This document shows, piece after piece, positions 27,232 to 63,885 of a DNA stretch of 64,000 nt (positions within the stretch are counted from its first letter, which is position 1; the number at the start of each line of letters is the position of its first letter). The notes under the pieces were generated by a model that saw only the letters and a list, made by a program, of their open reading frames with translations, had not been told where the DNA came from and made no database searches. This DNA comes from Phycisphaerae bacterium (GTDB taxonomy: Bacteria > Planctomycetota > Phycisphaerae > JAJVII01): the NCBI GenBank assembly GCA_022072085.1, contig JAJVII010000021.1, forward strand, positions 1 to 64,000, written 5' to 3'. A program made the position numbers and the translations under genes.

Positions 27232-28419
27232 TCACCCGGCGCGGCGGCGACGGGAGGCGGCCAGTGCCAGGCCGCCCAGGCCCAGCAGGGCCAGGGTCGC
27301 CGGCTCGGGCACCTGGGCGACGGCCGTGAACTTGAAGAGCTGATTGCTGTTGCCGGCGCCGTTCCAGCCGCCGCCTTCGAGCACCAGCAGGTTGTCGGCG
27401 TCATACCAGAGCAGGGCATTGGCCCGGTCGCCCTGGGAGTGATTGGTCGGGCTGAACTGGTCGGCCGGGATGATGTCGCGGCAGTAGAGGCTCTGCAACC
27501 GCTTCCAGGTGTCGCCGCCCTGGTTGGCGTATTCCTCGATGGACCAGTTGTCGTAGGCAGTGCTGTAGCGGAGCACCCAGAGGTCGCCGTCGGCGTCGAA
27601 GCTGAGGCTGGAAATGGTCCCGGTGGTGATGGCGACGCCGCTCTCGTTCTGGAGGGTCAGGGCCGTCGGCGTGGTGGCCGTCCGCGTCCCGACGGTGTAG
27701 GTCGGCGTGCCGCTGTCGACGACCAGCCCGCTGCGGGCCGCCAGGTCGAAGTAGTAGACGCCCGCGCCGGCGGCGCCGAACATGCGGGCAACGTTGCCGC
27801 CCGACGGCGTGCCGTGAAGCTGGAGCCCGTGCAGGTGGTTGCCCCCGGTGCTGCTGGTCGCGATCTGGGTCATCGCCAGCGTCGCGCCGTCCTTGTCGGT
27901 CGGGTCATAGGCGCCGCTGCTGTTCTGGGGCTGGAGCTCCAGGATCGTCGTAACGGAACTGCCGATGTTGTCGTAGCTCCAGAACATGCTCGGGTCGCCG
28001 CCGCTGTCGCCGCCGTAGTAGGCGATCGACTGGCCGGTCTTGCCGCCCGTGCCCATCACGCCCCCGTTGAACGTGTCCACGGGATTGAGAAACGATGCAT
28101 CGCGCCACCGGCCGTCGACCGACGTGCCGTAGTAGTTGCTGCTGGTGGTCAGGGAGTAGCGGTAGTTGGTGAACGTGAGGTCGGCGATGTTGAAGTCCTG
28201 CCGGGCGACCGACGGGTAGTAGAGCGGCCGGGCGCTACCCACGAACGCCAGGTGACCCGCGCCGTCGGTGCTCATCGCGTTGCCCGACCAGCGGGTGCTG
28301 TCGCTGCTGCCCTGAGCGTAGGAGTCGTACTGGATTTCCGTCAGCCCCGCCCGCGCCGGCAGACAGGCCGCAAGCGTCAGGATCGCAGCCGCCGCACAAG
28401 TCGTCCCGAGTCGCAACAT
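27232..28419 (-). CDS. PEP-CTERM sorting domain-containing protein
   Basis: Signal peptide plus C-terminal VPEPATLALLGLGGLALAASRRRRAG. Confidence 0.9.
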   Translation of the reverse strand: MLRLGTTCAAAAILTLAACLPARAGLTEIQYDSYAQGSSDSTRWSGNAMSTDGAGHLAFVGSARPLYYPSVARQDFNIADLTFTNYRYSLTTSSNYYGTSVDGRWRDASFLNPVDTFNGGVMGTGGKTGQSIAYYGGDSGGDPSMFWSYDNIGSSVTTILELQPQNSSGAYDPTDKDGATLAMTQIATSSTGGNHLHGLQLHGTPSGGNVARMFGAAGAGVYYFDLAARSGLVVDSGTPTYTVGTRTATTPTALTLQNESGVAITTGTISSLSFDADGDLWVLRYSTAYDNWSIEEYANQGGDTWKRLQSLYCRDIIPADQFSPTNHSQGDRANALLWYDADNLLVLEGGGWNGAGNSNQLFKFTAVAQVPEPATLALLGLGGLALAASRRRRAG

Positions 28420-28532
28420 GATCGACCTCCGTTCTCCCGCGAGTCTTCACGAAACGAGCCAGGAATTGGCCTGTCCCCGGTCCCCGGCGCCCCGGTTTGC
28501 CGCCCTCGGACGTGTGGACCGTTTGGCGATGC

Positions 28533-28548
28533 CGCAAACGGCGTGCCA
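28533..28548 (-). promoter_or_regulatory. Candidate sigma-54 promoter TGGCAC-GCCGT-TTGCG
   Basis: 114 nt upstream of ATG 28419; one deviation (TTGCG) from TGGCAC-N5-TTGCW. Confidence 0.7.
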
Positions 28549-28792
28549 GGACCGACTATCGCCCTCGACTTCTTCCCTTGGAGGCCATAAGCCGTTGGGC
28601 TTCCCCGCCTTGCAGTGCAAAATTCTCTCCGGAATAACTCCGCTGCCCGATTCCAGAGGCTGACGGTGTTGATTTGCATCAACATGGAACACGCCGCGCG
28701 TTGATTCCAGGCAACGCGCAGGCTCCGCGGGCGCGGATCGATGCGGCGGGCGCAAGGACCTCAGGCGGGCCCACTTCAGGCGGCCGGGGGGA

Positions 28793-29626
28793 TCAGGTCA
28801 GCAGTTGCTTGCTGCGGGTGAACTGGAGTTCGCGGTCGGCCAGGCGGCCTTCGAGGCAGGCCCGGCTGATCTCGATGACCTCCCGGGCCTCGTCGGGCGT
28901 CATCGTGCCGACGGTCACCAGGTCGATCGGCCGAAGCGTGGACCAGGCGAAGGGCAGCCCGACGTAGGGCATGACGCGGCCGGCGGCCATCGGCTTGATG
29001 GTCGTCACCGGATGGCGGGCGTTGTGGATCATCTTCTGCGTCCAATCGATCTCCAACGGCATGAGGAAACCGGCGGAGTTGTAGATGCAGATGTAGCTGG
29101 CGACGTCCAGCTCGGTCCGGTCGGCGGCGACGATGGCCTCGGGCAGGTGCGTGCTCAGGCCGGGGATCATGCCGCGCTGGCGGGCCATCTCGCTGATGCG
29201 GTCCATGTGCCGGATCGTCCGCGTCAGCCCGTCGTAAAGCCGGTCGGTCAGCGACGTATGCGGCCAGCAGAACGTCGCCCCGCGGGCGGCGCAGCGGTCG
29301 TAGGAGCGGGCGACCGAGTCCCAGTCCGGCCCGCTCTCGGTCAGGTCGAAGCCTGGCGTGCAGATCCAGTGCAACTCGGCGCCGACGGACTGGCGGGCCT
29401 GCTCGATCGCGTCCGGCAGCGGGTCCTGCATCGGGCCCATCGTCACGTTGACGCCGGCGGTCAGGAAGACCGCGAGCATCTCGGCCAGCTTGTCGCGGTC
29501 CTGGATGCTGCGGACCCACTGGCCCCGCGACTTGGTCTGGTGGGCATAGCCCAGCCACCAGTTGGAGCCGGCCACCAGCCGCGAGACACTCACGCCGCCG
29601 ATCTGCGTCCGGGGAAACTGATCCAT
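28793..29626 (-). CDS. Aldo/keto reductase-like / TIM-barrel hypothetical protein
   Basis: 277 aa; MDQFPRTQIGGVSVSRLVAGSNWWLGYAHQTK start resembles the AKR N-terminus; C-terminal VTVGTMTPDEAREVIEI. Confidence 0.6.
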   Translation of the reverse strand: MDQFPRTQIGGVSVSRLVAGSNWWLGYAHQTKSRGQWVRSIQDRDKLAEMLAVFLTAGVNVTMGPMQDPLPDAIEQARQSVGAELHWICTPGFDLTESGPDWDSVARSYDRCAARGATFCWPHTSLTDRLYDGLTRTIRHMDRISEMARQRGMIPGLSTHLPEAIVAADRTELDVASYICIYNSAGFLMPLEIDWTQKMIHNARHPVTTIKPMAAGRVMPYVGLPFAWSTLRPIDLVTVGTMTPDEAREVIEISRACLEGRLADRELQFTRSKQLLT

Positions 29627-62765: not shown

Positions 62766-63008
62766 GGCGTGCATCCTTTCGTCAGGGATAGCGGGAAGCT
62801 TCAGGATAGAAGCCGCAGGCGGTCCGACGCAAGCCCCCATCTACCCAAACCCAGAGCTGACGCATCTCTTTCGGCCAAGCCCCGCTTGCGAACCCCGAAC
62901 GCGACAAGGGAATTGGATGCGATTGCCCTACAGCCGACTCGGCACGCGGCGCTGCCGGTGACACGCGAACATGAAGGCTGATCGACGCATACCTCGTGCA
63001 TTCCGATG

Positions 63009-63764
63009 TCACGGCCGGCGGCGTCGGCGAACAGCCGGCCCGACCAGGGCCAGCCCCCCCAGCACCAGCAGCGAGAGCGTCGCCGGCTCGGGGACCGCGG
63101 TGACGGCATACATGTTGTGCAGCGTCGCCCCGGTGAAGGTCGGAACGATCGTCATCGACCGGATGGCCGGCTCGCCGCCGCTGCCGGTGATGGCCCAGGT
63201 GACCGCGGCCTTGCTCGAAGGCGAGCTGGCCGACAGGACCGTGCCGATCTGGTTGGTGTAGTTGTCGTCGGAGTAGAGCTTGATGGTCAGCGTGTGCTGC
63301 GCGTAGCCGCCGATGAGCGTGAAGAAGGAGACGGCCTCGACGGGATCGTCGAACTGCACCCGCCAGGCCGCCGGCGTGTCGTACCACCAGTCGTAGACCT
63401 TATACCCGCTGCGCGAGTCGTGGCGGAGCTGGGTGTAGTTGCTGACGCCCGCGTTGTTGATGTCGAACGAGGCGATCGAAAACCCTGTGTCGCCGCTGCT
63501 GAAGTGATCGTAGGGCGACATGCCGCCCGGGGCTGTCACGTTGATGTTCGCGTTCCAGGCCGAGTAGCCGTCGCCGAGGTTCGTGTCAAAGTCGACCGAG
63601 AGGTCCGCCGACTCGAATCCCGCCGGCGTCGTGCTCATGAACGTGGCGAACCCGCTGCTGCCGGTCGAGCCGGTGGCCTGGAGGATGTAGTCGGCCTGCG
63701 CGGTTCCGACCGCCAGCATCGCGACGGCCGCCATCGCCAGCAGAGAATGGAATGAGGTCCGCAT
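63009..63764 (-). CDS. PEP-CTERM sorting domain-containing protein
   Basis: MRTSFHSLLAMAAVAMLAVGTAQA signal; C-terminal VPEPATLSLLVLGGLALVGPAVRRRRRP; the longer ORF start at 63881 falls inside the promoter motif. Confidence 0.9.
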   Translation of the reverse strand: MRTSFHSLLAMAAVAMLAVGTAQADYILQATGSTGSSGFATFMSTTPAGFESADLSVDFDTNLGDGYSAWNANINVTAPGGMSPYDHFSSGDTGFSIASFDINNAGVSNYTQLRHDSRSGYKVYDWWYDTPAAWRVQFDDPVEAVSFFTLIGGYAQHTLTIKLYSDDNYTNQIGTVLSASSPSSKAAVTWAITGSGGEPAIRSMTIVPTFTGATLHNMYAVTAVPEPATLSLLVLGGLALVGPAVRRRRRP

Positions 63765-63869
63765 GTGAATCCCTCCGCGATCTTCGTTCGCCCCTGGCAG
63801 TCTTGGTTTCTCCACCGAAATCGACCGCAACAGCCCTTCCGGGCCGAGCAAGCGAGCGTGTTCGTATGT

Positions 63870-63885
63870 AGCAAAGGCCATGCCA
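63870..63885 (-). promoter_or_regulatory. Candidate sigma-54 promoter TGGCAT-GGCCT-TTGCT
   Basis: One deviation (C to T) from TGGCAC-N5-TTGCW; 106 nt upstream of ATG 63764. Confidence 0.7.

What the first reader, a model, noticed from the sequence alone, without database searches (positions are those of the whole stretch)
27232..63885. All five PEP-CTERM genes have sigma-54 (-24/-12) promoter motifs at a near-constant distance
Seen: TGGCAC-N5-TTGCA is exact at 29866, 32269 and 36792 (+). On the minus strand there is TGGCAC-N5-TTGCG at 28533-28548 and TGGCAT-N5-TTGCT at 63870-63885. Distances to the preferred ATGs are 105, 192, 104, 114 and 106 nt. Known: in Proteobacteria, PEP-CTERM/exosortase systems are associated with the PrsK/PrsR two-component pair, PrsR being a sigma-54-interacting regulator. 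Inference: a comparable RpoN-controlled PEP-CTERM regulon exists in this lineage, and the genes form one regulon although they are scattered.
Basis: partly seen in the sequence, partly recalled or inferred. Interest (0 to 1): 0.85.

Follow-up and report, generated by a model that had tools for sequence, protein, structure and literature searches.

The report
Shared switch for PEP-CTERM surface-protein genes
In this uncultured planctomycete, dozens of scattered genes for sortase-tagged surface proteins carry the same sigma-54 promoter plus a matching upstream binding site, so one master regulator probably switches them on together, using a site and regulator different from those known in Proteobacteria.

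Summary
The exact motif TGGCAYN5TTGCW occurs 74 times in the 5.49-Mb genome (3 for the reversed control), never inside a called gene, and 42 sites precede PEP-CTERM genes. With a weight matrix, 50 of 90 PEP-CTERM genes have a sigma-54 promoter against 0 of 233 control genes (p = 3e-34). RpoN (one gene), one exosortase and 13 enhancer-binding proteins (EBPs) are present.

56 promoters carry it at helically phased distances (109, 120, 131, 141, 152 bp; p = 8e-10). All 37 tandem pairs are 2 or 3 DNA turns apart. It is absent at sigma-54 sites of groEL, dnaK, hsp20 and flgB.

PrsK and PrsR, the proteobacterial regulators, are absent by curated cut-offs. The best candidate regulator is an NtrC-like histidine kinase-response regulator pair, conserved across Phycisphaerae, usually with this palindrome upstream of its own operon. 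Class-wide, the palindrome-promoter pair precedes a small protein gene and PilZ genes; only this family applies it to many PEP-CTERM genes.

This is a sigma-54 PEP-CTERM regulon wired differently from the proteobacterial one. All evidence is computational: no transcription start was mapped and no binding shown.

The parts
27232..28419 (-). PEP-CTERM protein gene (395 aa, signal peptide)
   Evidence: PF07589 30.7 bits
28533..28548 (-). -24/-12 sigma-54 promoter TGGCACGCCGTTTGCG, 113 nt from ATG
28667..28684 (.). UAS palindrome TGTTGATTTGCATCAACA (exact), distance 140 to the -24 element
28699..28716 (.). second, weaker UAS CGTTGATTCCAGGCAACG, 32 bp from the first
29738..29755 (.). degenerate UAS TGTTGCGGCCGGTTATCG (left half intact), distance 132; below the score threshold
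29866..29881 (+). -24/-12 promoter TGGCACGCCATTTGCA, 104 nt from ATG
29986..31986 (+). PEP-CTERM protein gene (666 aa)
   Evidence: PF07589 23.7 bits
32122..32139 (.). UAS TGTTGCGTCCGAGCATCA, distance 151
32153..32170 (.). second UAS TGTTGCCTTTTCGCATCA, 31 bp from the first
32269..32284 (+). -24/-12 promoter TGGCACGCTGTTTGCA, 191 nt from ATG
32476..36516 (+). PEP-CTERM protein gene (1346 aa from the signal-peptide ATG)
   Evidence: PF07589 22.8 bits; start choice
36664..36681 (.). degenerate UAS CGTTGCGAAAACGCCTCA, distance 132; below the score threshold
36792..36807 (+). -24/-12 promoter TGGCACGGAATTTGCA, 103 nt from ATG
36911..38380 (+). PEP-CTERM protein gene (489 aa)
   Evidence: PF07589 18.2 bits (below the 20.7 cut-off), 23.8 bits (above it)
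63009..63764 (-). PEP-CTERM protein gene (251 aa)
   Evidence: PF07589 21.7 bits
63870..63885 (-). -24/-12 promoter TGGCATGGCCTTTGCT, 105 nt from ATG; its best UAS (score 11.5, distance 145) falls just past the window end

Best explanation
The five genes belong to one regulon of PEP-CTERM surface proteins in a Phycisphaerae bacterium. RNA polymerase with sigma-54 (RpoN) sits at the -24/-12 element. A dimer or higher oligomer of an AAA+ activator binds one or two palindromes (TGTTG-N8-CAACA) 100-180 bp upstream, on the matching face of the helix. DNA looping brings it to the polymerase and ATP hydrolysis opens the promoter. The most likely activator is the NtrC-type response regulator at G000:C56:18657-20033, phosphorylated by the PAS-HisKA kinase encoded just before it (C56:20023-21123); the pair probably controls its own operon through the same palindrome. 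A receiver-less EBP (C18:38576-39538) is itself a target and may amplify the response. Steps shown: motif, palindrome, enrichment, phasing, conservation. Steps inferred: sigma-54 dependence, identity of the activator, the signal, and the role in surface or biofilm remodelling.
For: Motif: 74 exact hits vs 3 control, none inside called genes, 42 before PEP-CTERM genes. Enrichment: 50/90 PEP-CTERM genes vs 0/233 control genes, and 0/90 with the same upstream DNA reversed. Palindrome: 53 vs 4 control genome-wide; at 42/90 PEP-CTERM genes vs 0/233 control genes; 79 of 88 strong copies in the fetched DNA lie 90-265 bp upstream of a sigma-54 site. Phasing: 56 promoters, R = 0.61 at 10.5 bp, p = 8e-10; 37 tandem pairs, all 21-22 or 31-33 bp apart. 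RpoN and EBPs present. Regulator: of 13 EBP operons only C56 and C18 carry a strong palindrome upstream. Orthologs of the C56 regulator have a palindrome (9/10 or better, or 8/10 with both cores intact) within 1.5 kb upstream in 25 of 30 loci, with the recognition-helix region INRTTLYKK conserved in 29 of 30. In the same-family genome G009 a PilZ gene with palindrome and promoter is adjacent and convergent to the regulator gene. In G009 six of eight composites precede PEP-CTERM genes.
Against: No transcription or binding data. About 35-45% of PEP-CTERM genes lack the promoter. Two of the five window genes have only degenerate palindromes. Regulator assignment rests on conserved upstream sites and one adjacency; genomes whose small-protein gene lacks the site still keep the regulator and its own site, so no co-loss supports it. 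The C18 EBP is an alternative. The exosortase gene itself shows neither element.
Confidence: 0.8

Rival explanations
1. The sigma-54 regulon is real, but the palindrome is bound by the receiver-less EBP at C18:38576-39538 (or another EBP), not by the C56 response regulator.
For: The C18 EBP gene has a strong palindrome and a TGGTACGCCGTTTGCA promoter at the favoured distance of 122. EBPs often regulate their own gene.
Against: Only the C56 regulator was shown to be conserved class-wide with the palindrome upstream. A gene that itself needs the palindrome and sigma-54 for expression cannot easily be the first activator. The distribution of the C18 EBP in other genomes was not tested.
Confidence: 0.15
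2. A PrsK/PrsR system as in Proteobacteria, inherited or transferred.
For: Among the 13 EBPs the C56 regulator scores best on the PrsR model TIGR02915 (418.7 bits). Same logic: activator site plus sigma-54 site before single PEP-CTERM genes (PMC1569441).
Against: The score is below the curated cut-off of 502.6, and AtoC scores higher on the same protein. PrsK is not detected. The kinase is soluble, PAS-HisKA. The proteobacterial motif 1 ends in TTTACA with a 63-nt spacer (PMC1569441), unlike TGTTGN8CAACA. That paper found the DNA motifs only in Proteobacteria.
Confidence: 0.04
3. The motif is a duplicated upstream module copied along with PEP-CTERM genes and has no regulatory role.
For: Some promoters are very similar across paralogs. 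AT-rich spacers are shared.
Against: Only the functional positions are conserved while the DNA between them differs. Helical phasing at several distances (109 to 152) cannot come from copying one module. The same pair precedes unrelated genes (small protein, PilZ, EBP) in many families.
Confidence: 0.03

Closest known systems
Proteobacterial PEP-CTERM regulon with PrsK/PrsR and sigma-54 (Haft et al. 2006, PMC1569441)
   Same: Sigma-54 -24/-12 element before many single PEP-CTERM genes; a separate upstream activator site, sometimes repeated; a two-component NtrC-type regulator; about 60% of PEP-CTERM genes covered in both.
   Different: Different phylum; activator site TGTTGN8CAACA instead of a 17-nt motif ending TTTACA; phased spacing of about 100-150 bp instead of a 63-nt spacer; no PrsK or PrsR by model cut-offs; site also controls PilZ genes and a small planctomycete protein.
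RpoN-dependent pepA of Aquincola tertiaricarbonis (PMC9850573)
   Same: Experimentally mapped sigma-54 promoter TGGCAC / CTGCTT before a PEP-CTERM gene needed for flocs.
   Different: Betaproteobacterium; PrsK/PrsR type; a single gene tested.
Predicted sigma-54 regulon of Planctomycetota (PMC12316311)
   Same: Predicts sigma-54 promoters at chaperone, flagellar and EBP genes in Planctomycetota, as seen here at groEL, dnaK, hsp20 and flgB.
   Different: The text mentions neither PEP-CTERM, exosortase nor PilZ; COG-based enrichment.
NtrC-family two-component systems that autoregulate (AtoSC, ZraSR, NtrBC)
   Same: REC-AAA+-Fis regulator, cognate PAS-HisKA kinase, tandem palindromic sites, looping (established knowledge of the family).
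   Different: Below the AtoC, ZraR and NtrC equivalog cut-offs; different operator and targets.

Membership tests
Sigma-54-dependent promoter | Invariant GG at -24 and GC at -12 with the right spacing, consensus TGGCAC-N5-TTGC | tested here: met
Sigma-54-dependent promoter | RpoN encoded in the genome | tested here: met
   PF04552, 219 bits, C12:74258
Sigma-54-dependent promoter | Enhancer-binding AAA+ activators and an upstream activator site | tested here: met
   13 EBPs; phased palindromes
Sigma-54-dependent promoter | Transcript starts about 12 nt downstream of the -12 element | not testable with these tools
   no transcript data
PrsK/PrsR PEP-CTERM regulatory system | PrsR response regulator (TIGR02915 at or above 502.6 bits) | tested here: not met
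   best of the 13 EBPs 418.7 bits
PrsK/PrsR PEP-CTERM regulatory system | PrsK histidine kinase (TIGR02916 at or above 300 bits) | tested here: not met
   best 107 bits, C-terminal kinase part only
PrsK/PrsR PEP-CTERM regulatory system | Motif 1 ending TTTACA about 63 nt before the sigma-54 element | tested here: inconclusive
   no dedicated search; the recurrent upstream element here is TGTTGN8CAACA at about 100-150 bp
PEP-CTERM/exosortase system | PEP-CTERM tags plus an exosortase (PF09721) | tested here: met
   94 PF07589 hits at E <= 1, most over the cut-off; one exosortase, 191 bits, C8:86626
NtrC-type two-component system | REC + sigma-54 AAA+ + Fis HTH, with a HisKA kinase next to it | tested here: met
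   C56:18657-21123

The most novel reading that the evidence does not exclude
A class-wide, autoregulated NtrC-type two-component system of Phycisphaerae, reading TGTTGN8CAACA, ancestrally switches on a small conserved planctomycete protein and c-di-GMP-binding PilZ proteins, and in one family has been extended to dozens of exosortase-sorted surface proteins. Sigma-54 control of PEP-CTERM proteins would then have arisen at least twice independently, through different activators and operators.
Probability: 0.55. Interest if true: 0.72.

Novelty: new variant of a known kind. Interest (0 to 1): 0.64.

Why it matters
It turns a scattered, mostly hypothetical set of surface proteins into one co-regulated group in a largely uncultured bacterial class, names the operator and a candidate regulator, and points to convergent wiring: two phyla put PEP-CTERM proteins under sigma-54 with different activators. 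That supports the idea that exosortase substrates need tight all-or-none co-expression, perhaps for building a surface or extracellular matrix. The operator is short and conserved enough to predict targets in other Phycisphaerae genomes.

Tried and rejected
PrsK/PrsR was tested and rejected by model cut-offs. The GAF-type EBP next to the small-protein gene (C37:23469-24977) was considered as the activator, but it has no palindrome upstream of itself and sits next to the small-protein gene only in the same-family locus L233 among the 80 fetched loci. A co-loss argument (partial alignments ending at residue about 393 in genomes without the small-gene palindrome) was dropped when the full sequences showed the helix-turn-helix intact and the autoregulatory site kept. 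Reading the groEL, dnaK, hsp20 and flgB sites as part of the same regulon was rejected: they lack the palindrome and sigma-54 chaperone promoters in Planctomycetota are already predicted (PMC12316311). Pooling the small-gene distances (piled at 138-139) with the phasing test was rejected because those promoters are homologous. A literature search for this palindrome with EBPs gave only incidental sequence matches in titles and abstracts.

Full report
WHAT WAS CLAIMED AND WHAT IS THERE. The five -24/-12 motifs are present at the stated coordinates, and each precedes one of the window's five PEP-CTERM genes, which are the only PF07589 hits in the window. Within the window alone the excess is modest (7 matches with one mismatch allowed, 2.4 expected, 3 of 100 shuffles reach 7). 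The genome settles it: 74 exact matches to TGGCAYN5TTGCW against 3 for the reversed control. None of the 74 lies inside a called gene. The columns left free in the search pattern are themselves conserved (CTGGCACGC--TTTGCW), as expected for sigma-54 and not for chance hits.

ENRICHMENT. Forty-two of 74 sites precede PEP-CTERM genes. With a weight matrix, 50 of 90 PEP-CTERM genes carry a sigma-54 site, against 0 of 233 control genes from fifteen arbitrary 20-kb stretches and 0 of 90 when the same upstream DNA is reversed (Fisher p = 3e-34). The matrix was trained partly on these sites, but the exact-pattern count does not have that weakness. TGGTAC variants account for several more genes. Some PEP-CTERM genes without a site lie close behind another PEP-CTERM gene (for example on C57 and C45) and could be operon-internal; others show no such signal and are probably outside the regulon. 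RpoN is a single gene, the exosortase is single, and there are 13 clear enhancer-binding proteins. The exosortase gene shows neither element upstream.

Aligning the DNA upstream of the 74 sites shows a palindrome, consensus ATGTTGC-N6-GCAACAT, about 100-180 bp upstream of the PEP-CTERM promoters. TGTTGN8CAACA occurs 53 times in the genome against 4 for the reversed control. Of 88 strong copies in the fetched DNA, 79 lie 90-265 bp upstream of a sigma-54 site, 56 of them leading to a PEP-CTERM gene. For 56 promoters with a copy within 200 bp, the nearest copy falls at about 109, 120, 131, 141 or 152 bp. This is a phase-locked series (R = 0.61 at 10.5 bp, Rayleigh p = 8e-10; no jittered set of 20,000 reached it), and all 37 tandem pairs are 21-22 or 31-33 bp apart. 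Such helical phasing is the signature of an activator that loops to the polymerase. In the window, the 28533 promoter has a perfect copy at 28667 and a weaker one 32 bp further, the 32269 promoter has two near-perfect copies 31 bp apart, the 29866 and 36792 promoters have degenerate copies at the favoured distance of 132, and the copy for 63870 lies just beyond the window end. The sigma-54 sites of groEL, dnaK, hsp20 and flgB lack the palindrome, so the palindrome rather than the promoter defines this regulon.

WHICH REGULATOR. PrsK and PrsR are absent by curated cut-offs. Among the 13 EBP operons only two carry a strong palindrome upstream. One is a receiver-less EBP (C18:38576-39538) with its own sigma-54 site at distance 122, so it is a target. 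The other is a histidine kinase / NtrC-type regulator operon (C56:21123-18657) with palindromes but no sigma-54 site found nearby. Regulators at least 55% identical to the latter are present in 25 of 35 class genomes examined. Among 30 ortholog loci of named Phycisphaerae genomes, 25 have the palindrome within 1.5 kb upstream, where chance would give roughly 0.04 per locus (my estimate), and the recognition-helix region INRTTLYKK is conserved in 29 of 30. In the same-family genome G009, a PilZ gene carrying palindrome and promoter lies adjacent and convergent to this regulator. I therefore assign the palindrome to this regulator, at about 75-80%; direct binding is not shown.

HOW OLD AND HOW WIDE. 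Loci fetched with the small protein come from Phycisphaerae; the match for the small-protein ortholog in the same-family genome is 'Phycisphaerae bacterium isolate STB_87', and that genome and G009 give the regulator hit at the same contig coordinates, so they are evidently the same assembly. A strict palindrome-plus-promoter search over 300 class genomes found 14 positives (control 1), with 16 hits here, 8 in G009 and at most 2 elsewhere, although PEP-CTERM genes are abundant in all 24 class genomes tested (7-131 each). In the other families the targets are a small protein (...DLEATRRENxYLRxMLE..., no Pfam family, some members named 'transcriptional regulator' by sources) and PilZ proteins. 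Of 80 small-protein loci, 43 have a sigma-54-like site and 43 a 9/10 or better palindrome upstream. The simplest reading is an old regulon of the class, later extended to PEP-CTERM genes in this family. Only two genomes of the family are held, so the timing is tentative.

COMPARISON WITH THE KNOWN. Sigma-54 control of PEP-CTERM genes with PrsK/PrsR was proposed for Proteobacteria in 2006, where the authors stated that among the PEP-CTERM species they discussed only Proteobacteria share those DNA motifs (PMC1569441), and it was tested for one gene in Aquincola (PMC9850573). A 2025 survey predicts sigma-54 control of chaperones, flagella and EBPs in Planctomycetota but its text does not mention PEP-CTERM or PilZ (PMC12316311). 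The library searched is open-access only, so prior work in subscription journals may have been missed. The present system works like the proteobacterial one but fails its membership tests, so it is filed as a new variant.

LIMITS. Everything here is sequence inference from a draft assembly (72 contigs, 97% complete). Gene starts come from a home-made caller with a signal-peptide heuristic. The signal sensed by the kinase and the cellular outcome are unknown; surface or biofilm remodelling is a guess from PEP-CTERM and PilZ.

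Noticed in passing
G000:C9:110639 (groEL), C23:9499 (dnaK), C33:77493 (hsp20), C9:62817 (flgB): Consensus sigma-54 promoters without the palindrome precede chaperone and flagellar genes (gene names from sequence, not family scans); matches a published prediction for Planctomycetota.
   Followed up: partly
Function unknown; about half of 80 class loci carry the palindrome and/or sigma-54 site.
   Followed up: partly
G000:C9:13781 and L221, L219, L212: PilZ-like proteins lie behind the same palindrome-promoter pair in several families, suggesting a link to c-di-GMP signalling. 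PF07238 was confirmed for the G000 protein; the G009 fragment was borderline and the others were judged by eye.
   Followed up: partly
between palindrome and -24 in PEP-CTERM promoters: An AT-rich stretch (60-64% AT at -60 to -31 in a 67% GC genome) that could be an IHF/HU bending site; weaker in non-PEP sigma-54 promoters.
   Followed up: no
G000:C16:73664-74910, C34:2032-3300: PEP-CTERM genes that look split into two frames behind a good promoter: frameshift, pseudogene or assembly error.
   Followed up: no
G000:C3:91184, C45:39805, C30:65524: Good palindrome-promoter pairs with no evident downstream gene on that strand; possible small RNA, missed short gene or decayed locus.
   Followed up: no
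window 26772-27177: From reading the sequence: a HicA-like/HicB-like gene pair sits next to the first PEP-CTERM gene.
   Followed up: no
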